From Solidesulfovibrio sp. (GTDB lineage: Bacteria > Desulfobacterota > Desulfovibrionia > Desulfovibrionales > Desulfovibrionaceae), in assembly GCF_038562415.1 (NCBI RefSeq), contig NZ_JBCFBA010000006.1:124001-188000 (forward strand): 64,000 nt of DNA. Reading direction: 5' to 3'. Within the stretch, counting starts at the first letter, position 1; each line of letters begins with the position of its first letter. The notes below the pieces were generated by a model that searched no databases, was not told where the DNA came from, and saw nothing but the letters and a program-made list of their open reading frames with translations. Below, one piece after another: positions 51,777-64,000 of this stretch. Made by a program: the position numbers and the translations under genes.

Positions 51777-52087
51777 AGCGCGTCCCGGCCTCACCCGGGG
51801 CCTTGCCACGGTTTTTGGTGCTTGCTAAAATTGTTGCTAAAGATATGGATGCAGTTTTCGACTTTCTGGTGGCTTTTTTCCGAGCGGCGTCGGTATCCGA
51901 TGACGGCCGGACAACGACAGGGGGAGCAGGCCGGGAACGGCCGTCGGGAGTCGTGTCGTTTCTGGAGGCCGGGCCGGGAAGTGCGGCCGCAGGCGTGGAG
52001 CAGACTGTATCGAAGGCCGATGGGACCTTGGGCGCTCCGGCCGCACGCCGGACAACCCGCGGGCCAACCGCCGCACCCTGGACGGGC
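51777..52087. other. Leader region of the transporter-kinase gene
   Basis: About 310 bases. The kinase frame stays open through it (ATG at 51845 is in frame), but the encoded text (RTTRGPTAAPW-like) looks non-coding and no ribosome site supports an early start. It holds a direct repeat TTGCTAAA at about 51824 and 51835. Confidence 0.45.
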
Positions 52088-55000
52088 ATGAAGCTTTCTC
52101 TCAAAGTCCTCAGGCGGCAACAGACCTATAATGCCTTTGTCGCCAACGAAGCCATTGAGGACTATTCCCTACGCTACGCCGCCAATTCGTTTCGGCGCTG
52201 GCCGGAATGGCTCCTGGCCAACACGGCCCTGGGCGGGACCTCGTTTTTGGCCCTGGAGGCCATCGGCGCCCTGCTGATCATCGATTACGGCTTCACCAAC
52301 TCGACCCTGGCCATTCTCACCGTGGCCTCGGTCATCCTCCTCACCGGCCTGCCGATCGCCTACTACACGTCCCGCTACAATGTGGACATCGACCTCCTCA
52401 CCCGGGGCGCGGGCTTCGGCTATCTCGGCTCGACCATCACCTCCCTGATCTATGCCTCCTACACCATCATCTTTTTCGCCATCGAGGCGGCCATCATGGC
52501 CAAGGCCCTGCAACTGGGGCTCGGCATGCCGGTGGCCGCCGGCTATCTGCTAAGTTCGATCATCATCATCCCCCTGGTCTTTTACGGCATCACCGTCATC
52601 AACGGCTTGCAACTCTATACACAGCCGATCTGGATCGGCCTTTCGATCCTGCCCTTCCTGTACATCCTGGACAAGAATCCCGATGCCGTCGCCATCTGGA
52701 CGCATTTCGCCGGCATCGGTCACCGGTCCAACGTCTTCGATCCCTTGCTTTACGGCAGCGCCATGTCCGTGGGCTTTTCCCTGATCGCCCAGATCGGGGA
52801 GCAGGTGGACTACCTGCGGTTCCTGCCGGACAAGACACCGAAGAACAGGTCCCGCTGGTGGTTGGCCCTGGTCAGCGCCGGCCCGGGCTGGATCGTCCCC
52901 GGCGGCCTCAAGCTCCTGTGCGGCTCGTTTCTGGCCGTCTATTGCATCAGCCGGATCGGCTATTCCCGGGCCGGAGCCACCGATCCCGTACTCCTCTATC
53001 ACCTCGGCTTCGGCCAGGTCTTCGCCGATCCCCGGATGGCCCTGGCTGTCACCGTCCTGTTCGTTATCGTCTGCCAGGTAAAGATCAACGTCACCAATGC
53101 CTATGCCGGCTCCCTGGCCTGGTCCAACTTCTTTTCCCGCATTTCCCACAGCCACCCCGGACGGGCCATCTGGATCCTCCTCAACATCGTCCTGGCCATC
53201 CTCATCATGCAATTCGGCCTGCTCTACATCCTCAATTCCATCCTGCTCGTTTACGCCATGTTCGCCATGGCCTGGATCGGCGCAATATTCGCCGACTTGG
53301 CCATCCTGAAACCCCTCGGCGTCAGTCCGGCCCATATCGAATTCAAACGGGCCAACCTGTACAACCTCAACCCCGTCGGATTCGGGGCCATGACCCTCGG
53401 CTTCGCCGCGGCCCTCCTGGGCCATTTCGGCCTGTTCGGCGTATATATCAAGGCGTTCTCAGTCCCTGCCGCCCTGGTCGTGTCCATCGCCGCCGCCCTG
53501 GCCATCGCCGCCTTGACCAAGGGCCGCTACTACCTGGCCCGTAAGGTCGCCCCCTTGGACGCCGGGCTGAGTATCACCTGCACCTCCTGCAACAAGGACT
53601 ACGAAGCGGCGGACATCGTCCTTTGTCCGGCTTACGGCGAATACGTCTGCTCGCTGTGCTGCTCCCTGGACAGCGTCTGCAAGGGCATCTGCAAGCGGCC
53701 CCGCGCCGCCGAAACCTTGTCGCGCCAGGGCGCCTCCCCCCCCCATGTCTCTCCCCACCTCTGGCGCAGGCTGAAAATTTTCGGCGTCTACTTCGGCAGC
53801 GCCACCGGCGTGCTGACGGTCGTGTTCGCCCTGATCTACGCCTATTTCGCCATGACTCTAGGCAACGGTGTGCCAGTGGGCGTCTTCCTGACGCTTTTCG
53901 CCTTCGTCCTGGTGGTCACCGGCATGTGGACCTGGTGGTTCTCGCTCATCCAGGAGTACCGGCTTCACGCTGAGGACGAACTGGACAAGTACATCCAGGA
54001 ACTTGAGAACGAAGGCAAAAGGCGACAGGCCATCAGCGCCGCCCTGGAAGAGACCGAGCAGCTGCAACGGCTCATCCTGGAGAATGCGACTATCGGCATC
54101 GCCTATGTAAAAAATGACTATATCATATGGAAAAACAAACAATTCTCAATTCATAGCGGCATCGAGAAAGACCGGCTGGACTGTTGCCTCCACGCTAGTA
54201 TGCTCTTTAACGACGAGGTGCTGTACGACAAGCTCATCCAGGATGCCCAGGCCAGCCCCGGCAACAGAAAGAAATTCACCCTTGCTCTGCCTAGCTCGAA
54301 CGGCCAGAACCGCGGCCGCTGGTCCATCCTGTCCATCAACGCCGTGAATCCGGGTTGCCTCAGAGACGGATCCATCTGGCTGCTCAACGACATCACCGAA
54401 CACAAGCTGGCCGAAGAGAACCTGCGTATGAGCGAGGACCGTCTCCGGGAACTCAATGAGAACCTTGAAACCCAGGTGCGCCATCGTACCGAGGAGCTGA
54501 AAAAGAGCTACGAATCCATCCGGCAGGCGGACAAGATGGCCTCGCTCGGCATCCTCGTCTCGGGCATGGCCCACGAGATCAACAATCCCATCAGTTTCAT
54601 CATGCTCAATTCGGGTATCATCCAGGATGTCTGGCACGATGTCGTCAAACTCATGGACGAACGCTACGGTACCTCGCCGGAGCTTTGGATAGGCCGGATG
54701 CCCTACGCCTCGGCGCGTACGGGCATCGAAAAACTCCTCAAAGGCATCCACCAGGGGGCCGTGCGTGTCTCGGGCATCGTGCGCAACCTGAAGGAATACG
54801 CCAAGCAGACGCCGCTGGACATGACCGGGGATGTGGACCTCAATAAAGCCCTGGCCACCTCCCTGGAACTGTTGGCCAACGGGCTGCGCAAGGCGACCAG
54901 CGACCTGCGGGTCGACAAAGGGGCGGACCTGCCGCTTTTCAAGGGCGACATGCTGCGCATCGAGCAGGTGCTCATCAACCTCATCCAGAACGCCTACCAG

Positions 55001-55279
55001 TCCTTGCGCACCCGCTCCGCGACGATTCACATCCGGACCTTTCAGGAGGAGGATTCCGTCGTCTTCGAAATCAACGACCAGGGGTGCGGCATTTCCCGGG
55101 AAGCTCTCGAACACGTGCTCGATCCCTTCTTCACCACCAAAAGGGACAGCGGCGGCACCGGGCTCGGGCTTTCGGTCTCGGCCGGCATCGTCAAGGAGCA
55201 CGGAGGGACACTGGCCATTGAATCCGTCCCCGGGAAGGGCACCCGCGTGGTGCTGACCTTTCCCGCCGCCGCGCGCTAA
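52088..55279 (+). CDS. NCS1-type permease fused to a PAS histidine kinase
   Basis: 1,063 residues from ATG 52088 (an earlier ATG at 51845 is possible). Residues about 30-485 form about 12 helices resembling cytosine/purine NCS1 permeases. A Cys-rich linker follows (about 498-537: CTSCNKDY, VCSLCC, CKGICK). Then two more helices (about 560-620), a PAS domain (about 660-780), HisKA with H829 (GMAHEINNP) and HATPase (NLIQNAYQS, DQGCGIS, GTGLGLS). It is a transporter-like sensor, comparable in design to CbrA but with a different permease family. The next gene, 29 bases on, is its likely sigma-54 response regulator. Confidence 0.88.
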   Translation: MKLSLKVLRRQQTYNAFVANEAIEDYSLRYAANSFRRWPEWLLANTALGGTSFLALEAIGALLIIDYGFTNSTLAILTVASVILLTGLPIAYYTSRYNVDIDLLTRGAGFGYLGSTITSLIYASYTIIFFAIEAAIMAKALQLGLGMPVAAGYLLSSIIIIPLVFYGITVINGLQLYTQPIWIGLSILPFLYILDKNPDAVAIWTHFAGIGHRSNVFDPLLYGSAMSVGFSLIAQIGEQVDYLRFLPDKTPKNRSRWWLALVSAGPGWIVPGGLKLLCGSFLAVYCISRIGYSRAGATDPVLLYHLGFGQVFADPRMALAVTVLFVIVCQVKINVTNAYAGSLAWSNFFSRISHSHPGRAIWILLNIVLAILIMQFGLLYILNSILLVYAMFAMAWIGAIFADLAILKPLGVSPAHIEFKRANLYNLNPVGFGAMTLGFAAALLGHFGLFGVYIKAFSVPAALVVSIAAALAIAALTKGRYYLARKVAPLDAGLSITCTSCNKDYEAADIVLCPAYGEYVCSLCCSLDSVCKGICKRPRAAETLSRQGASPPHVSPHLWRRLKIFGVYFGSATGVLTVVFALIYAYFAMTLGNGVPVGVFLTLFAFVLVVTGMWTWWFSLIQEYRLHAEDELDKYIQELENEGKRRQAISAALEETEQLQRLILENATIGIAYVKNDYIIWKNKQFSIHSGIEKDRLDCCLHASMLFNDEVLYDKLIQDAQASPGNRKKFTLALPSSNGQNRGRWSILSINAVNPGCLRDGSIWLLNDITEHKLAEENLRMSEDRLRELNENLETQVRHRTEELKKSYESIRQADKMASLGILVSGMAHEINNPISFIMLNSGIIQDVWHDVVKLMDERYGTSPELWIGRMPYASARTGIEKLLKGIHQGAVRVSGIVRNLKEYAKQTPLDMTGDVDLNKALATSLELLANGLRKATSDLRVDKGADLPLFKGDMLRIEQVLINLIQNAYQSLRTRSATIHIRTFQEEDSVVFEINDQGCGISREALEHVLDPFFTTKRDSGGTGLGLSVSAGIVKEHGGTLAIESVPGKGTRVVLTFPAAAR

Positions 55280-55308
55280 CCGAGGACAGTTCCGAAGGAG
55301 TGTGCATC

Positions 55309-56757
55309 ATGTCTGTGCAACGCAATCCCACATATCCTATCCTCGTCGTGGACGACGAACGCGCTGCCCTCGACGGTTTCGAGATCGCCCTGGCCACCGC
55401 CGGCTACACCAATGTCACCGCCATTGAGGACAGCCGCAACGTCCTGTCCTTCCTGGAAGGGCACAAGGTGGAATTGATCCTGCTCGACTTGATCATGCCT
55501 CACGTCAGCGGCGGGGAACTGCTCGTCGAAATCAGGCAGCGTATTCCCGAGACACCGGTCATCATCGTTTCCGCTGTCAACGAGATCGATTCCGTGGTCG
55601 AGTGCATGCGCAACGGGGCCACAGACTACATCCTCAAGCCGGTCGAGTTGGAACAGTTCAAAAGCCGGGTGCGTACCTGTCTCGAATTTAACGAACTGGA
55701 ACGAGAAAACGCTCGTTTGCGGGCCTCCCTACTCCAGGAGTCCTTGCAGCAACCCGCCGCCTTCGACGAGATCGTGACCCGAAGCCCGAAACTGTGCACC
55801 ATTTTCCGTTATTGCGAGGCCGTGGCCAAGAGCAGCAAGCCGATCCTCATCACCGGCGAAACCGGGACGGGCAAGGAGTTGATCGCCCGGGCGGTGCACC
55901 GTCTGAGCAACCGCAAGGGCGCCTTCGTAGCCGTCAATATCGCCGCCTTCGACGACGCCATGTTCGCCGACACGCTGTTCGGCCACGTCCGGGGGGCCTT
56001 CACCGGCGCGGAGAGCGCCCGGCCCGGACTGGTCGAAAAGGCCGCCGGCGGAACGCTTTTCCTGGACGAGATCGGCGACCTGCCCCTCGTTTCCCAGGTC
56101 AAGCTGCTGCGGCTGCTACAGGAACAGGAGTACTTCCCAGTAGGTTCGGATTCCATGAAGAAGGCGGACGTGCGCATCCTGGCCTCGACCCTCAAAGACC
56201 TGAACACGCTAAAAGCTGAACACCTCTTCCGGGAGGACCTCTACTACCGCCTGATCACCCACACGGTCCGCCTACCGCCGTTGCGCGAGCGCCTGGAGGA
56301 CATCAAGCTCCTACTCGATCATTTCTTGGCTGTGGAAGCCAGGGAACTCACCATGAAAATACCGACATACCATCCCGAACTGGTCAACTTACTGCGAGCC
56401 TATGCCTTTCCCGGCAACATCCGCGAACTACGGGCCATGATCGCCAACGCCCTAACGAGCCATACCTCGCGAATGTTGTCCTCGGAGTCATTCAAAGCCT
56501 ATATCACCAATACCAACGGACCGTTACCAACGCCCGCTGCGGTTGTAAGCATCGATCCCTTTGCCACTCTGCGCTTCGATCCAGAGGCCATGCCGAAACT
56601 CAAAGAGACTACCAATCGTGTTGCCGCCATACTCATTGAGCAAGCTATGACCATCGCAGGGGGCAATCAAACGGTGGCTTCGCGCATTCTGGGAATTTCC
56701 CAGCAGGCGCTCAGTCTGAAGCTCAAAAAGAAAAGCGCTTGCGGCTACGGCGAGTAA
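55309..56757 (+). CDS. NtrC-family sigma-54 response regulator
   Basis: 482 residues. The receiver has phospho-acceptor D60 (LLDLIMP). The AAA+ domain (about 155-390) carries Walker A GETGTGKE, the sigma-54 loop GAFTGA and Walker B FLDEIGD. A Fis-type helix-turn-helix ends the protein (QTVASRILGISQQALSLKL). AAGGAG lies 9 bases before ATG 55309; the GTG at 55300 is less likely. Partner of the permease-kinase and probable activator of the -24/-12 elements before amiF and fmdB. Confidence 0.93.
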   Translation: MSVQRNPTYPILVVDDERAALDGFEIALATAGYTNVTAIEDSRNVLSFLEGHKVELILLDLIMPHVSGGELLVEIRQRIPETPVIIVSAVNEIDSVVECMRNGATDYILKPVELEQFKSRVRTCLEFNELERENARLRASLLQESLQQPAAFDEIVTRSPKLCTIFRYCEAVAKSSKPILITGETGTGKELIARAVHRLSNRKGAFVAVNIAAFDDAMFADTLFGHVRGAFTGAESARPGLVEKAAGGTLFLDEIGDLPLVSQVKLLRLLQEQEYFPVGSDSMKKADVRILASTLKDLNTLKAEHLFREDLYYRLITHTVRLPPLRERLEDIKLLLDHFLAVEARELTMKIPTYHPELVNLLRAYAFPGNIRELRAMIANALTSHTSRMLSSESFKAYITNTNGPLPTPAAVVSIDPFATLRFDPEAMPKLKETTNRVAAILIEQAMTIAGGNQTVASRILGISQQALSLKLKKKSACGYGE

Positions 56758-56766
56758 GAGCCACTA

Positions 56767-57576
56767 GGGTCTGTTCATAATAGCTCTATTATTGCAACCA
56801 GATGAAGGCAAAGACGAGATGCAGCGTCGCCAGTCGCCGGAACTGCTTGATACGATTGAAAAATCGTTCAACAAGGTTGCGGTCTTTGTAAACATGGTGA
56901 TCGTATTCTCGCCCGATAATGCGGTTTTTTCGGCTGGGGATGACCGCCTCTGCGTTTCGAGACGTAATGCAGACGACAAACGCGTTGGAGTCGTATCCCT
57001 TGTCAGCCACAATCGCAAGGCGTCAAATCCAGCAATCAAGGCCTGGGCTTGCGTTATGTCCGCAGCTTCGCCACCAGTCAAAAGCAAACGAACGGGATTG
57101 CCCAATCCATCCACCGCAGCATGAATCTTTGTCGTCAGTCCGCCACGCGAACGTCCGATGTCTTGCGGCCCTTCTTTTTTTGGGCACCCGCCGCATGCTG
57201 GTGGGCACGGACAATGGTACTGTCAATGAAGAGCATTTCTAAATCTGGATCACCAGATACAACTTCGGCTAACCGAGCCCAGGTTCCTTTTTCGCACCAC
57301 CTGGCAAATCGCACATACACGCTGTGCCAGTTTCCGAACTCCTTTGGCAGATCGCGCCAGGGAGAACCTGTTCGCGCTATCCAAAGCACAGCCTCCAGGA
57401 ATAGCCTATTATCCTTAGCTGTTACACCGCGATCTCGTTGCTTCCCCGCACAAAGTGGCTCCAACCGGGCCCATTGGTCATCGCGTAATAGTAACCGTTC
57501 CATGCCCCTGTCTCCCCTAGGAGACAGAATTGAACGATCTCAGTCGATTAGTAAACTCTTAAATGTGAACAGACCC
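56767..57576 (-). mobile_element. IS5-family insertion sequence (IS427-like), 810 bp
   Basis: Ends are inverted repeats (GGGTCTGTTCA at both termini, reverse-complemented at the right) and a TA dinucleotide flanks each side (56765-56766, 57577-57578), which fits a TA target duplication. Inside is one transposase in two frames on the minus strand. Confidence 0.85.
56789..57503 (-). pseudogene. IS5-family transposase, frameshifted
   Basis: OrfA (57135-57503, 122 codons) begins MERLLLRDDQWARLEPL and contains LFIDSTIVRAHQHAAGA. At 57174-57182 the slippery heptamer A-AAA-AAG would allow a -1 shift into the frame reading DIGRSRGGLTTKIHAAVDG and onward. A further one-base deletion near 57013 then breaks that frame before VADKGYDSNAFV (56789-57010). 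So the programmed shift looks intact but the copy is probably dead unless the deletion is a sequencing error. Confidence 0.8.
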
Positions 57577-59430: not shown

Positions 59431-59679
59431 ATGAGCGAAAACCTGAAACGCTTCATATGCCTGGGGTGCGGGTTCTTGTATGACGAAGCTCTGGGATTGC
59501 CCGAGCACGGCATCGCACCGGGCACCCGCTGGGCGGATATCCCGGAGAACTGGGCCTGTCCGGACTGCTTCACGGCCAAGCACCTCTTCGAAATGATCGA
59601 GATCCCCTATGCTGTGGGTGAGCCCCATCTGCCGCAGCTGAGCCCCGCCGCGCCGCCTCAACCCCCGCATGCCATCTAG
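59431..59679 (+). CDS. Rubredoxin-type protein with a Pro-rich tail
   Basis: 82 residues. The rubredoxin core has both knuckles, CLGCG and CPDC, with the [17 protein letters not shown] segment between. A C-terminal extension of about 25 residues is rich in Pro ([10 protein letters not shown]). GGAGAG supports ATG 59431. Iron-only electron carrier in the cytosol. First gene of a plus-strand set with a cupin and a tautomerase. Confidence 0.92.
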
Positions 59680-59691
59680 AGGAGAGCCGCC

Positions 59692-60441
59692 ATGAATACG
59701 TCCTTCGTCCTGCGCGCCGGGGCGCGCGGCTACAACAAGTTACGATCTACAGGACCGCTGGCGAGCTACGTCTCGGGGCATCCTGAGGCGGTGTTGCTGC
59801 GCCACTCGAGCTTCAACTTCGGCACGTACCAGACTGGCCACGCCGGATTCGGCCGCATGCGGGTGTTCGGCGACGAGGTCTTTAGCGGACCAGGCTGCGG
59901 TTACAACATGCACCGGCACCACAATTTCATCATCTGCGCTTTCGTCCTGGAGGGTGAACTTGCGCACATCAACACGGTAGGCAACATCGATCGGCTGACA
60001 CCTGGCGATTACTACGTTTTCTCTGCCGGCTCCGGGGGCAAGCACTGCGAGGTGAACCTGAGAGGCGACGACATGCATGCCATCTATATCTGGTTCCTGC
60101 CCGATCAGCTCCTGCTTCCCCCATCGTACCACAGGAATCATTTCGACGCCTTGGCCAATCGCAATCAGCTCGTGACGCTGGTAGGCAATGCGGACGGGGC
60201 GCTTCGCGTCTCGCAGGATATCAAGGTGTCTCGCCTGTCGAGCGACACCGCCATGGCGCTCGACTACACGCCACAATCGGCCGAGCACGGCGTCTACGTT
60301 TTTGTGTTGGATGGTGAAGTCCATTGCAACGACGTCAGCCTCGCCCGTCGTGACAGCAGCGGAATCTGGGGTGCGAAGCGGATCAAGCTCCAGACAGGAC
60401 CACAGGAAACCGACCTGATGCTTGTTGAAACGGCCCCATAA
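59692..60441 (+). CDS. Pirin-like bicupin
   Basis: 249 residues. The N-terminal cupin has the metal-site HRHHNF and an FVLEGELAH turn, as in pirin/YhhW proteins; the C-terminal cupin lacks obvious His ligands. Pirins include quercetin dioxygenases and regulators, so the reaction is open. GAGGAG precedes the ATG, 12 bases after the rubredoxin stop. Confidence 0.85.
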   Translation: MNTSFVLRAGARGYNKLRSTGPLASYVSGHPEAVLLRHSSFNFGTYQTGHAGFGRMRVFGDEVFSGPGCGYNMHRHHNFIICAFVLEGELAHINTVGNIDRLTPGDYYVFSAGSGGKHCEVNLRGDDMHAIYIWFLPDQLLLPPSYHRNHFDALANRNQLVTLVGNADGALRVSQDIKVSRLSSDTAMALDYTPQSAEHGVYVFVLDGEVHCNDVSLARRDSSGIWGAKRIKLQTGPQETDLMLVETAP

Positions 60442-60527: not shown

Positions 60528-61085
60528 ATGCCCATCATGCACGTCTATTATCCCCAAGGATCGCTGCCCGGCGAGCGCAAGGCGGAGCTCGCCCAAAAAT
60601 TAACCGACGTCTTGCTGCAGATGGAGGGCAATGCCAGGACGGCTGGCGGTCTCGGCTTCGCCTCGGTTCTGTTCACCGAGGTCGCGCCATCGGACTGGTG
60701 GGTCGGTGGCCGCAACGACGCCACCTACGTCGCGCCCCCGGGCAAGTTCCTGGTTCGCGTGTCCATCCCCGAGGGCTACATGAATCAGGCGCACAAGACC
60801 GAGGTTCATGTCGCCGTCACGGCCGCCATCGTGGCCGTCACCGGCAACCCCGAGGATCCCAAGCAAGGCGCGAGCGTGCAGGTCATCATCGACGAGGTGA
60901 CGGAGGGGAACTGGGCCTCCCATGGCCGGACAATCAGTCTGGCCAGCATCGCCGACACGGTCGGGCTGCCCAAAAACGGGGAACGCTTCCAATGGGTCCG
61001 GGCCTATTTCGACGCCAAGGCAAGGCAGTTCGCGGCGGCGGGATATCCTGCGGACGTCGGCGGACTTCTGAACGATCTGAAATGA
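60528..61085 (+). CDS. Tautomerase-superfamily protein
   Basis: 185 residues. The mature N-terminus would be Pro (MPIMHVYYPQG), the catalytic residue of tautomerases. Two beta-alpha-beta halves are likely: residues 2-75 and 90-160 (KTEVHVAVTAAIVAVTGNP, then VQVIIDEVTEGNW), so it resembles a fused 4-oxalocrotonate tautomerase or cis-CaaD-like dimer. GGGAGAA precedes the ATG. It ends 18 bases before the convergent monooxygenase stop. Confidence 0.85.
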   Translation: MPIMHVYYPQGSLPGERKAELAQKLTDVLLQMEGNARTAGGLGFASVLFTEVAPSDWWVGGRNDATYVAPPGKFLVRVSIPEGYMNQAHKTEVHVAVTAAIVAVTGNPEDPKQGASVQVIIDEVTEGNWASHGRTISLASIADTVGLPKNGERFQWVRAYFDAKARQFAAAGYPADVGGLLNDLK

Positions 61086-61103: not shown

Positions 61104-62651
61104 TCAGGAGACGCGGCCGAGAATCCGGAGCAGGTGGTCGCCGAGGGTCTTCCAATCGCCCGGGGCGGCGACCACGGCCACATACCCGTCCGGCCTGACC
61201 AGGGTGAGGGCTCCGGTTTCACCGAGGGCCGAACACGTGTGGCAAACCGCCCCGAACCGCGCTTCGAAGCGCTCCCGGGCCTGGGTGGCTGGGGCCGCCT
61301 TGCCGACCGCCAGGAAATGCCCCGCTGCAAGGCGGCCGTAGAGGGTGTCCGGCTCCCCGGGAGCCGCTTCCAGGCGGACGTCCGGGGCCCGCGATCCGGG
61401 ACGCGCCAGCCCGCCCGCTCGGTTTTCGTTGGGGGTGGTCCCCGTCAGGAGGCTGTCGTGGTAGGCGATGGCGGTCTCGGCCAATCTGTTGGCGAAGCCG
61501 CGTTGCACCGGCGGCAGGCCCGAAACGAGGGAAACGAGGGCGTCGCGCAGGAACCGGCCCAGGGGCTGGCGTATGGTGGCAAGCCGCGTGCCCAGGGTCG
61601 CGGCCCGGATGACCGTTGCCGCCACGGGGCGGCGTTCCCTCTCGTAACTGGCCAGAAGCAGGCCGTCGGCAGCCTGGCCGCGGCAGGCCAGGGCCAGCTT
61701 CCAGGCCAGATTGAAAGCGTCCTGCATGCCGGTATTCATGCCCTGGCCGCCGGCCGGGCTGTGGATGTGGGCGGCATCGCCGGCCAGAAACACCCGGCCG
61801 AGGCGGTAATGGTCGACCTGGCGCTCGTTTATCCGGAAAAAGGAGAGCCAGGAGGGGGCGGTGGCGCGCCATCGGCCCGGGCCGCGCCGGTCCATGACCT
61901 CCTGGATGTCTCCGAGGCTGGGATCGGGGCGTCTGCCCTCGCCCCGGGCCGGACCGACGTCGGCCGCCACCCGGTAACGGTCTTCGCCGAGGGGGAAAAA
62001 GATGAGCACCCCTTCGGCATGCCAGAAAATGTTGAGGGCGGACCGGGTCAGGACCGGTTCCCCGGTCTGGTCCTGGTCGATGCGGACGTCGCCCAGGACC
62101 CAGTCGCTGTCCTCGGTCTCCCCGGCAAAGGCGAGGCCCAGGGCATGGCGCGTGGTGCTGTGCGCGCCGTCGCAGCCCACGAGCCAGGAAGCGGCGAGGC
62201 GCTCCTCGCGGCCGTCGGCCTGGACGAGGGAGGCTATGACCGCGTCCGCTTCCTGGCGCAGGCCGGCCAGGGCCACCGAGCGCTCCACCGTGACGCCGTG
62301 TTGGGCAAGATGCTCCTCCAGCAACCGCTCGGTTTCGCTTTGGGGCAAAAGCAGGCCGAAATTAAAGGCGCTGTCGATCAGGCCCAGGGGCATGGCCACA
62401 AGCTTGCGGCTGCCGGCGAAAATCCGGGCCTCCCCCACCCGCAGCCCTGCGCCCAGGAAACGATCGGCCAGGCCGGCGGCCTGGAGCAACTCCAAGGTTC
62501 TGGACCAGACCACCAAGGCCTTGGATTTGTCCGAGCGGGCGGCGGCCTGGTCGATGATCCGGGGCCGCACCCCGTGGCGCGCCAGTTCCATGGCCAGGGT
62601 GAGCCCCACCGGCCCGGCGCCTGCGATCAACACCTGTTCTTGCGCGGTCAT
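61104..62651 (-). CDS. FAD-dependent aromatic-type monooxygenase
   Basis: 515 residues, PHBH-like group A flavoprotein hydroxylase. Motifs: dinucleotide fold IAGAGPVGLTLAMELA, CDGAHSTTR, and GRVFLAGDAAHIHSPAGGQG. The C-terminal thioredoxin-like domain of the phenol-hydroxylase/RdmE type is present. It would use NAD(P)H and O2, odd for an anaerobe. AAGGAG precedes ATG 62651, which overlaps the NHLP-like gene stop by ATGA. Last gene of the operon. Confidence 0.92.
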   Translation of the reverse strand: MTAQEQVLIAGAGPVGLTLAMELARHGVRPRIIDQAAARSDKSKALVVWSRTLELLQAAGLADRFLGAGLRVGEARIFAGSRKLVAMPLGLIDSAFNFGLLLPQSETERLLEEHLAQHGVTVERSVALAGLRQEADAVIASLVQADGREERLAASWLVGCDGAHSTTRHALGLAFAGETEDSDWVLGDVRIDQDQTGEPVLTRSALNIFWHAEGVLIFFPLGEDRYRVAADVGPARGEGRRPDPSLGDIQEVMDRRGPGRWRATAPSWLSFFRINERQVDHYRLGRVFLAGDAAHIHSPAGGQGMNTGMQDAFNLAWKLALACRGQAADGLLLASYERERRPVAATVIRAATLGTRLATIRQPLGRFLRDALVSLVSGLPPVQRGFANRLAETAIAYHDSLLTGTTPNENRAGGLARPGSRAPDVRLEAAPGEPDTLYGRLAAGHFLAVGKAAPATQARERFEARFGAVCHTCSALGETGALTLVRPDGYVAVVAAPGDWKTLGDHLLRILGRVS

Positions 62652-63016
62652 ACCTTCTCCTTGCGCGCCGCAGACGCAGCCCATGTCGAACGCATGTCGC
62701 GCAGCACCCAGGTGAGCGCCTCGTCGGGGATCAGGTAGCCACCGATGCCGTCGGTGAACAGCATGTCGTAGACCCGGCGGCTCGCCGCATCGATGTCCGC
62801 CGCATTCGGTTCGCCCGCGGCCGGCGGCGCCGGCAGTATGATGGTGATCGTATCCGGCTCCTGCGGCACTACTTCGATCCGATAATCCCCGTCGGGGACC
62901 GAGCCGAAGTACTCCTTCAGACCGGCAACCGGATCGTCGATCAGCCGACGACGCGCGGCGGAATCGCGACGGAGCAAGCAATAGTGGTCGGTGAAGACAT
63001 CGTGCTGGTCGCTCAT
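62648..63016 (-). CDS. NHLP-like protein B
   Basis: 122 residues, cytosolic. The N-terminal half (RRRLIDDPVAGLKEYFGSVP, then VVPQEPDTITIILPAP) resembles the nitrile-hydratase-alpha-like leader family. The C-terminal half (GIGGYLIPDEALTWVLRDMR) aligns with the same region of NHLP-like protein A, so the two genes are paralogues. ATGA overlaps couple it to both neighbours. No Cys-rich core peptide or processing GG site is evident, so a non-RiPP role such as an enzyme subunit is possible. Confidence 0.65.
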   Translation of the reverse strand: MSDQHDVFTDHYCLLRRDSAARRRLIDDPVAGLKEYFGSVPDGDYRIEVVPQEPDTITIILPAPPAAGEPNAADIDAASRRVYDMLFTDGIGGYLIPDEALTWVLRDMRSTWAASAARKEKV

Positions 63017-63363
63017 GGATTGTTTTCCCGGAAGCTCTGGCGCATGCGCAGCAGCTCCAGTTTCAGTGCCTGCGGCATGATCCAGCAAAACAGGTCGCCG
63101 CTTTGCCACAGATCCATCTGGCTGATCACCTTCTCTGCCTCCTCGGGGGGCACCGCGAGCGGTGGAATCACGAAATAAAGCGTGTCGCGCCGCTGCTGCC
63201 GGACGTCGATGGCGACGCCGGGCGAGACCTCCACGCCGATGCTGGCCAGCGCCTGCCGCGGATCCTTCCGAAGGAGCGCGGCAAAGGCTGGATCCGTCCA
63301 GGCGAGTTCGACCAGACGCCGCTCCAATGAGGCATTCCCTGAACCTTTCGTTTCGTTCTGCAC
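63013..63363 (-). CDS. NHLP-like protein A
   Basis: 116 residues from GTG 63363 (AAGGA upstream; TTG 63390 is an alternative). Residues about 15-65 carry the NHLP pattern ELAWTDPAFAALLRKDPRQA, then ASIGVEV and DTLYFVIPP. The remaining 50 residues (DLFCWIMPQALKLELLRMRQ) parallel the end of NHLP-like protein B. Only one Cys. It overlaps protein B by ATGA and follows the ThDP gene by 82 bases. Confidence 0.7.
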   Translation of the reverse strand: MQNETKGSGNASLERRLVELAWTDPAFAALLRKDPRQALASIGVEVSPGVAIDVRQQRRDTLYFVIPPLAVPPEEAEKVISQMDLWQSGDLFCWIMPQALKLELLRMRQSFRENNP

Positions 63364-63445
63364 GGCACTGTCCTTTCCGTCAGCATGCAAAGCCGGTCCT
63401 TGTCCTCTTTTGTGGCTGTGCTGCCGCAGGAAACCTCGACGACGT

Positions 63446-64000
63446 TCAGGGCTCGCGGTCGATAATCAGAAAACTCGGCCCTGGATGCGCGACCGCTCGC
63501 GCAAGAACCTCTCCGACAGTCTCAAGAGTTTCAATTTTTTCCGTGCGCGCGCCGAAGCCTTCGGCAATGCGCCGCAAGTCAACGCTTGGATCATCGAAAT
63601 CCATCCCGACGAAATGGGTGCTCTCCATCGCCGTCGCCATCGTGGCGCACCACAGATCCTTCAGCAAGCGGTATTCGTGATTCACGAAACAGACGAATAT
63701 GGACGGAATGGAATACTTGGCTGCGGTCCAAAGAGCATGGATCGAAAACAGACTGCCACCGTCGCCCACGAAGCAGACCGCGGGCTTGCCCGTCGCCAGC
63801 CCGATCCCGACGCCAAGCGGCATGGCCCAGCCCAATCCTCCGCCGCGGGGAGAGAAATGGACGTTGCGAAAGCCAAGGCGAACGGCCATGTCCTGCACGA
63901 TCGCGTCTTCGGAAGATCCCTCGGTGACGATATGAGTCGCCCGGTCGCAATGACGCAACACACCGAGAATGAGCGCGTCGCTCGGTCGCTTGCCGGACGG
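63446..64000 (-). CDS. Thiamine-diphosphate enzyme, C-terminal part
   Basis: 185 codons visible; the frame is open at the right edge, so the start is outside. The ThDP/Mg motif GDG...N is present (FVGDGGSLFSIHALWTAAKY, then VCFVNHEYR) in the pyrophosphate domain of decarboxylases such as benzoylformate decarboxylase or acetolactate-synthase-like enzymes. It probably decarboxylates a 2-oxo acid or ligates a carbonyl. First visible gene of the NHLP operon. Confidence 0.88.
   Translation of the reverse strand, partial: PSGKRPSDALILGVLRHCDRATHIVTEGSSEDAIVQDMAVRLGFRNVHFSPRGGGLGWAMPLGVGIGLATGKPAVCFVGDGGSLFSIHALWTAAKYSIPSIFVCFVNHEYRLLKDLWCATMATAMESTHFVGMDFDDPSVDLRRIAEGFGARTEKIETLETVGEVLARAVAHPGPSFLIIDREP

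What the first reader, a model, noticed from the sequence alone, without database searches (positions are those of the whole stretch)
61104..64000. Coupled operon with two paralogous NHLP-like proteins, ThDP enzyme and monooxygenase
Both small proteins share an NHLP-like first half and a second conserved half (a P-x-(x)AL ... MR pattern), and all junctions from protein A to the monooxygenase are ATGA overlaps. NHLP sequences are known mainly as RiPP leaders, yet these lack an obvious core peptide. A pair of NHLP-fold subunits working with a ThDP decarboxylase and a FAD hydroxylase would be a new arrangement.
Basis: partly seen in the sequence, partly recalled or inferred. Interest (0 to 1): 0.75.

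Follow-up and report, generated by a model that had tools for sequence, protein, structure and literature searches.

The report
Coreless leader-fold protein pair, decarboxylase operon
Two small sister proteins that look like the leader part of peptide antibiotics, but without any peptide to be made, travel as a coupled pair beside acid-decarboxylating enzymes in unrelated bacteria, so this fold seems to have a second, non-antibiotic job.

Summary
On the minus strand lie a ThDP decarboxylase, protein A (116 aa), protein B (122 aa) and a group-A FAD monooxygenase; A/B and B/FMO overlap by ATGA, ThDP-A is an 82-nt gap. A and B are paralogues along their length and belong to the NHLP/nitrile-hydratase-alpha clan, below the NHLP cut-off and without a variable core. 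In 12 A-B loci studied (mostly Alphaproteobacteria, Streptomyces plasmids, this genome) B follows A in 12 of 12, with a 4-bp NTGA overlap in 10; both halves are similarly conserved. I recognised no RiPP maturase beside the pair; the NHLP peptidase-exporter is over cut-off in 1 of 8 host genomes, YcaO in 2 of 8. Neighbours are aromatic- or phenolic-acid-type enzymes: ThDP decarboxylase in 9 of 12 (two clades about 30% identical, mixed against the A/B clades), CocE hydrolase, rubredoxin, pirin, tautomerase, FMO. The rubredoxin-pirin-tautomerase genes next door probably belong to the module. Best reading: a coreless NHLP-fold A:B heteromer in a mobile aromatic-acid pathway, role open. New variant of a known kind.

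The parts
63446..64000 (-). C-terminal part of ThDP 2-oxoacid decarboxylase (benzoylformate-decarboxylase-like, 535 aa; the rest lies beyond the window, to contig C6:189053)
63013..63363 (-). protein A: NHLP-like half plus conserved C-terminal half, GTG start, 116 aa
62648..63016 (-). protein B: paralogue of A, 122 aa, ATGA overlap with A
61104..62651 (-). group-A FAD monooxygenase (rifampin monooxygenase / polyketide hydroxylase type), 515 aa, ATGA overlap with B
60528..61085 (+). 185-aa tautomerase (4-oxalocrotonate tautomerase superfamily), convergent, 18 nt from the FMO stop
59692..60441 (+). pirin-family protein
59431..59679 (+). rubredoxin, 82 aa

Best explanation
A and B are a coreless, tandem-duplicated branch of the NHLP/nitrile-hydratase-alpha clan that is made and kept as an A:B protein complex, not as peptide-antibiotic precursors. 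They belong to a horizontally moving module for converting aromatic or phenolic acids: 2-oxoacid decarboxylation by a benzoylformate-decarboxylase-type ThDP enzyme, with varying helpers (CocE hydrolase, FMO, phenolic acid decarboxylase, D-lactate dehydrogenase, GST, rubredoxin-pirin-tautomerase). Shown: paralogy, clan, gene coupling, conservation of both halves, scarcity of NHLP/YcaO RiPP machinery in host genomes, recurrent neighbours. Inferred: that A and B bind each other; that the pathway acts on aromatic acids; horizontal transfer. Least certain: the role itself. I think the complex most likely binds or hands over a reactive product (aldehyde or oxidised aromatic) or docks the pathway enzymes, because it stays while the ThDP enzyme beside it is exchanged.
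For: B follows A in 12 of 12 loci, with a 4-bp NTGA overlap in 10 of 12 (11 bp in one, a 2-nt gap in one). Profile-profile E 1.9e-10 across both halves. dN/dS 0.12-0.28 over whole genes in 7 pairs compared for each protein, N and C halves alike. Clan: 7 of 7 A and 9 of 9 B rows match TIGR03793 at E up to 1; PDB matches to NHase alpha and the NHLP entries 8tb1 and 9cjx. Neighbours within the fetched flanks of 12 loci: ThDP 9, rubredoxin 5, pirin 5, CocE 5, tautomerase 4, GST of one kind 4, FMO 4, phenolic acid decarboxylase 3, D-lactate dehydrogenase 3 (one a fragment), small cupin 3, malic enzyme 2, RidA 2 (one fused to A), nitrilase 1 (families). Tautomerase at 57-61% identity in 6 of 298 genomes, 4 of them the B-positive genomes G059, G554, G565, G653 (Fisher p 5e-8). 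NHLP peptidase-exporter over cut-off in 1 of 8 hosts and YcaO in 2 of 8. One ThDP clade aligns over its whole length with benzoylformate decarboxylase structures at 772 bits.
Against: No assay and no interaction data. AlphaFold models are poor (pLDDT 50 and 54 from 4-row alignments). B carries a Gly-Gly before its conserved tail, as NHLP leaders do. 3 of 12 loci (L008, L012, L015) show no ThDP gene in the fetched flanks. Parts of the neighbourhood occur without A/B: the rubredoxin-pirin-tautomerase genes in G497 (twice) and G644, and a CocE relative at 50% in a Variovorax plasmid that no B or A search listed. The aromatic-acid assignment rests on family names; the window's ThDP lacks Ser26 and His281 of benzoylformate decarboxylase. 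The tautomerase test treats related genomes as independent; with G554 alone p is 0.02. Some hosts are fragmented MAGs, where absence counts for less.
Confidence: 0.5

Rival explanations
1. A and B are true RiPP precursors whose conserved C-terminal segments (after Gly-Gly in B) are the core, matured by enzymes encoded elsewhere, giving a conserved product such as a peptide-derived cofactor for the oxidoreductases.
For: NHLP clan; GG kept in 12 of 12 B and invariant Trp in both tails and Lys in A's; the Burkholderia NHLP pairs were proposed as two-peptide products (PMC2887384 section 8); the host has its own NHLP exporter on another contig.
Against: No maturase recognised beside the pair; NHLP peptidase-exporter over cut-off in 1 of 8 hosts, YcaO in 2 of 8; A has no GG; the tail is about as conserved as the leader half. 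Radical SAM and LanM enzymes were not searched genome-wide.
Confidence: 0.15
2. A:B is itself an enzyme, a metal-free relative of nitrile hydratase acting on an activated C=O, C=N or C-C bond produced by the pathway.
For: Sequence kinship with NHase alpha; RidA domain fused to A in L012 and nitrilase plus RidA near the pair in L015; invariant Lys, Asp, Glu, Arg and Trp.
Against: No invariant Cys or His and no CxxCSC site in either protein; a nitrilase in only 1 of 12 loci.
Confidence: 0.2
3. A:B is a dedicated structural or regulatory subunit pair of the ThDP decarboxylase or of the FMO.
For: ThDP gene in the flanks of 9 of 12 loci and directly upstream of A in window, L006 and L033; ATGA coupling of B to the FMO in the window.
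Against: A/B clades and ThDP clades do not match: L035 has window-type A/B with the other ThDP clade, L033 the reverse; the clades are about 30% identical. FMO in 4 of 12 flanks, 30-47% identical to one another in three of the four plus L051 (L033 and L051 65%, L012 and L015 49%).
Confidence: 0.15

Closest known systems
TIGR03795 (NHLP-Burk, BMA_0021/BMA_0022 family)
   Same: NHLP-clan proteins of similar length (model 114 positions) that occur as tandem gene pairs in Burkholderia (section 8 of PMC2887384 read)
   Different: Weak match in 1 of 7 A and 2 of 9 B rows, under the 41-bit cut-off where a score was printed; the one protein alignment range printed covers the NHLP half only (L013 B, residues 17-54); no cyclodehydratase neighbour recognised; no C-terminal Cys
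TIGR03793 NHLP leader (proteusins, NHLP lanthipeptides and TOMMs)
   Same: N-terminal half matches by profile, and matches the NHLP entries 8tb1 and 9cjx in the PDB
   Different: No hypervariable core; below the 50.9-bit cut-off in the 10 proteins whose scores were printed; no maturase or exporter recognised nearby
Nitrile hydratase alpha subunit
   Same: A's profile matches two stretches of the chain; B's one or two
   Different: No CxxCSC metal site; no beta-subunit gene recognised
Mandelate-type benzoylformate decarboxylase operons
   Same: A benzoylformate-decarboxylase-type ThDP enzyme near most A/B pairs
   Different: No mdlA, mdlB or mdlD recognised among the genes named; NHLP-like pair, CocE, pirin and tautomerase instead (mdl operon content recalled)

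Membership tests
NHLP RiPP precursor (TIGR03793) | Profile score above the curated 50.9 bits | tested here: not met
   Window A 33.9-34.1, B 18.4 bits; eight other proteins 21.3-40.5 bits. For the remaining rows only the best E-values were printed (8.7e-12, 4.5e-9)
NHLP RiPP precursor (TIGR03793) | GG cleavage site followed by a short variable core | tested here: not met
   B has GG but a conserved tail; A has no GG; C halves about as conserved as N halves
NHLP RiPP precursor (TIGR03793) | Co-occurring NHLP peptidase-exporter (TIGR03796) or YcaO | tested here: not met
   Over cut-off in 1 of 8 and 2 of 8 host genomes. TIGR03796 gave sub-cut-off ABC-type hits in 8 of 8 hosts and in 14 of 14 controls; YcaO was over cut-off in 5 of 14 controls
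NHLP RiPP precursor (TIGR03793) | Radical SAM or LanM maturase acting in trans | not tested
   Not searched genome-wide; none recognised in the flanks read
TIGR03795 tandem NHLP-Burk | Tandem paralogous pair | tested here: met
   12 of 12 loci, paralogy
TIGR03795 tandem NHLP-Burk | Score above 41 bits | tested here: not met
   L013 B 18.4 bits; window place 11.2 bits
TIGR03795 tandem NHLP-Burk | Cyclodehydratase gene nearby | tested here: not met
   YcaO in 2 of 8 genomes, on contigs other than those of A/B; none recognised in flanks
Nitrile hydratase alpha | CxxCSC metal-binding motif | tested here: not met
   No invariant Cys in 12 A or 12 B
Benzoylformate decarboxylase (window ThDP) | ThDP/Mg site: Glu47, Asp428, Asn455 | tested here: met
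   (residue roles recalled)
Benzoylformate decarboxylase (window ThDP) | Ser26 and His281 of the P. putida enzyme | tested here: not met
   Thr at 26, gap at 281; His70 kept (roles recalled); below the PRK07092 cut-off (287.6 of 493 bits)
Group-A FAD monooxygenase | FAD_binding_3 domain, GxGxxG and GD motifs | tested here: met

The most novel reading that the evidence does not exclude
The NHLP fold, described in the papers I saw as a RiPP leader or as part of nitrile hydratase, has been recruited as an obligate A:B heteromer that takes a direct part in small-molecule metabolism (binding or converting aldehydes and aromatic acids beside a ThDP decarboxylase), and spreads on mobile DNA between Alphaproteobacteria, Streptomyces and this genome's lineage.
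Probability: 0.4. Interest if true: 0.7.

Novelty: new variant of a known kind. Interest (0 to 1): 0.5.

Why it matters
NHLP-like sequences tend to be annotated as RiPP precursors or as nitrile hydratase (several of these genes are). A coreless, conserved pair with its own metabolic neighbours would show a second use of the fold, would warn genome miners against false RiPP calls, and could link nitrile hydratase, the RiPP leaders and a small-molecule-handling protein in one evolutionary story. It also names a rare, apparently mobile aromatic-acid module that can be tested in Methylocystis parvus, which carries two plasmid copies.

Tried and rejected
Viral contigs: 0 relatives among 98 and 44 candidate stretches. 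Relatives of the host: 2 of 58 other genomes rang weakly with A. G021/L009 is a chance match antisense to a long ORF, and G009/L010 holds short NHLP-like genes that, by eye, lack the second half. The second hit in the host, on C26, is by eye an ordinary NHLP precursor pair. Plasmid searches with neighbours: the window's ThDP found only one 32% match, the tautomerase 4 M. parvus records at 61-62% and one Methylocystis at 33%, the pirin 164 records of which 20 were listed, 4 of them M. parvus at 59-60% and the rest of the list at 33% or less.

Literature: no paper in the library held benzoylformate decarboxylase with rubredoxin and nitrile hydratase or M. parvus OBBP with plasmid and benzoylformate decarboxylase; the one paper with four broader terms is a Cupriavidus genome paper seen only as a listing. 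Searches listed nothing that I could recognise, from titles and abstracts, as this pair; one search found nothing. Papers opened: PMC2887384 (passages and section 8) and PMC12455567 (passages). Subscription papers are mostly not held.

Considered and rejected: chance ORFs (12 loci, dN/dS); an ordinary TOMM or proteusin cluster (no core, no maturase recognised); a metal-dependent nitrile hydratase (no ligands). PEARL-type scaffold peptides were considered from memory; no LanB-like gene was recognised in the flanks, but none was searched by profile.

Limits: of 10 plasmid records with a B hit I fetched 5 (the others are Streptomyces goshikiensis x3 and second M. parvus records x2); the two M. 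parvus loci come from one strain. Neighbour counts use flanks of about 1-14 kb, some cut by contig ends (L006 5.6 kb, L031 8.3 kb in all). Flanks were read by role search at E 1e-8, by eye, by the plasmids' own annotation and by Pfam on selected genes, not by full annotation of every gene. L015 also has a GST of another kind, not counted, and L035 a second ThDP-family enzyme.
Full report
Observation. The minus-strand order at the right edge of the window is ThDP enzyme, A, B, FMO. The ThDP gene continues past the window to contig C6:189053, with GGGAGGGA before its ATG. A most likely starts at the GTG at 63363, 82 nt after the ThDP stop; A/B and B/FMO are ATGA overlaps. Downstream, convergent on the plus strand, are rubredoxin (59431-59679), pirin (59692-60441) and a 185-aa tautomerase (60528-61085). 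Upstream of the ThDP gene is a nucleotidyltransferase pair, and to the left an IS4/5-type transposase fragment at 57135-57503.

What A and B are. A matches NHLP TIGR03793 at E 2e-8 and B at E 0.0015, both under the 50.9-bit cut-off. With homologues, 7 of 7 A and 9 of 9 B rows match it at E up to 1 (best 9e-12 and 5e-9), 6 of 7 A and 4 of 9 B match nitrile hydratase alpha, and 1 of 7 and 2 of 9 weakly match TIGR03795. Profiles of A and B find NHase alpha chains and NHLP entries in the PDB. The two profiles align to each other over 106 columns, E 1.9e-10, through the second half. NHLP leaders are reported to be folded (PMC12455567, passages seen), and NHLPs lack the NHase metal site (PMC2887384, passages and section 8 seen).

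Distribution. A-B pairs, or B with A beside it, were found in three MAG contigs (A located), ten plasmid records of Streptomyces, Methylocystis and Neorhizobium, and B in 5 of 397 genomes of one alphaproteobacterial family, the centre genome and, by its coordinates, M. parvus included. Elsewhere B was found only in the centre genome itself: 1 of 385 in a class, 1 of 65 in a genus, 1 of 250 in an order, and 1 of 297 in the host's phylum, the host itself. The nearest relatives of the window's pair are the MAGs at 76-83% identity; of 58 relatives of the host searched with A, none carries a full-length match that stood up. I infer that the pair is rare and horizontally acquired.

Anatomy across 12 loci (window, L006, L007/L035, L008, L011-L015, L031-L033). 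B follows A in 12 of 12; the junction is a 4-bp NTGA overlap in 10, an 11-bp overlap in L012 and a 2-nt gap in L014. In L012 the A part is fused to a RidA domain. Mean pairwise identity is 0.55-0.65 in A's leader half (residues 13-70) and 0.58 in its tail (83-116); 0.50-0.56 and 0.55 in B. dN/dS is 0.08-0.29 over all pairs and halves computed (7 pairs for each protein). That is the behaviour of a folded protein, not of a leader with a variable core. No Cys or His is invariant.

Neighbours (families): ThDP decarboxylase in 9 of 12; rubredoxin, pirin and CocE hydrolase in 5 each; tautomerase, one kind of GST and FMO in 4 each; phenolic acid decarboxylase, D-lactate dehydrogenase (a fragment in L031) and a small cupin in 3 each; malic enzyme and RidA in 2 each; nitrilase in 1. 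In G059 an FMO of the window's kind and a partial tautomerase sit on a separate short contig. Against a tight bond, the rubredoxin-pirin-tautomerase genes also occur without B: twice in G497 (one copy next to a FUSC-type exporter) and in G644.

Among 298 genomes of that family, 8 carry a tautomerase match at E up to 1e-10, 6 of them at 57-61% identity and 2 at 32%; the 6 include G059, G554, G565 and G653, that is, the B-positive genomes other than M. parvus. Fisher p is 4.7e-8. This assumes that the genomes are independent, that M. parvus (whose tautomerase is 61-62% identical) was not among the 298, and that genomes not named were B-negative as. If only G554 is counted, where the tautomerase lies on another contig than A/B, p is 0.02.

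The ThDP enzymes fall in two clades, about 30% identical: window, L006, L033 (80-84% within) and L035, L013, L014, L032 (87-92% within) with L011 at 50-52% to that group (L031's is a fragment). The second is close to benzoylformate decarboxylase (772 bits to a PDB chain) and has Ser26, Glu47, His70 and His281; the window clade keeps Glu47 and His70, has Thr at 26 and lacks His281 (residue roles, and P. putida as the source of 1bfd, recalled). The clades do not follow the A/B clades: L033 pairs Methylocystis-type A/B with the window-type ThDP, L035 the reverse. This argues for a link to the reaction step, not to a particular ThDP protein.

RiPP test. The NHLP peptidase-exporter TIGR03796 exceeds its cut-off in 1 of 8 host genomes, the window's own, on contig 26, about 6 kb from two NHLP-like precursor genes flanked by proteins that read as radical SAM enzymes. 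All 8 hosts and 14 of 14 controls gave sub-cut-off hits to this ABC-transporter model, as expected of so common a family. YcaO occurs in 2 of 8 hosts (5 of 14 controls), on contigs other than those of A/B. So the host itself offers a contrast: an NHLP RiPP-type cluster on C26 and the coreless pair on C6. Some hosts are fragmented MAGs, the Streptomyces and Neorhizobium hosts were not tested, and radical SAM and LanM enzymes were not searched genome-wide, so maturation in trans is not excluded.

Mechanism. I commit to a coreless NHLP-fold A:B heteromer in a mobile aromatic/phenolic-acid conversion module (0.5 overall). My estimates of the parts: A:B acts as a protein complex and not as a precursor, 0.75; the pathway concerns aromatic 2-oxo or phenolic acids, 0.6; its job is binding/hand-over or docking, 0.3. 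Structure prediction was too poor to help.

Novelty. The tandem NHLP pair has a precedent in TIGR03795, so this is a new variant and not a new kind. What I did not find in print (open-licence papers only) is a coreless NHLP pair in a decarboxylase/aromatic-acid setting.

Noticed in passing
L005 (G000:C26:5000-18000), and C26:2734-4866: An NHLP RiPP-type cluster of the same genome: two short NHLP-like precursor genes between proteins that read as radical SAM enzymes, with a peptidase-ABC exporter over the TIGR03796 cut-off about 6 kb away.
   Followed up: partly
L051 382-1170, minus: An ORF that near its start reads like the first residues of protein A, followed by a sequence with a PEP-CTERM-like tail; looks like a remnant or fusion.
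   Followed up: partly
L012 13154-14008: RidA domain fused in frame to protein A in Streptomyces anthocyanicus.
   Followed up: partly
L050 8796-13288 (G497): Rubredoxin, pirin and tautomerase genes without A/B, next to a FUSC (fusaric/aromatic acid exporter type) protein.
   Followed up: partly
window 51803-56757: A 1158-aa ORF that reads as a permease joined to a histidine kinase, followed by a sigma-54-type response regulator (by eye).
   Followed up: no
PDB nitrile hydratase alpha chains, e.g. 7qom_A 56-105 and 125-176: The A profile hits two separate stretches of one NHase alpha chain, as if the enzyme held an internal repeat of the NHLP motif.
   Followed up: no
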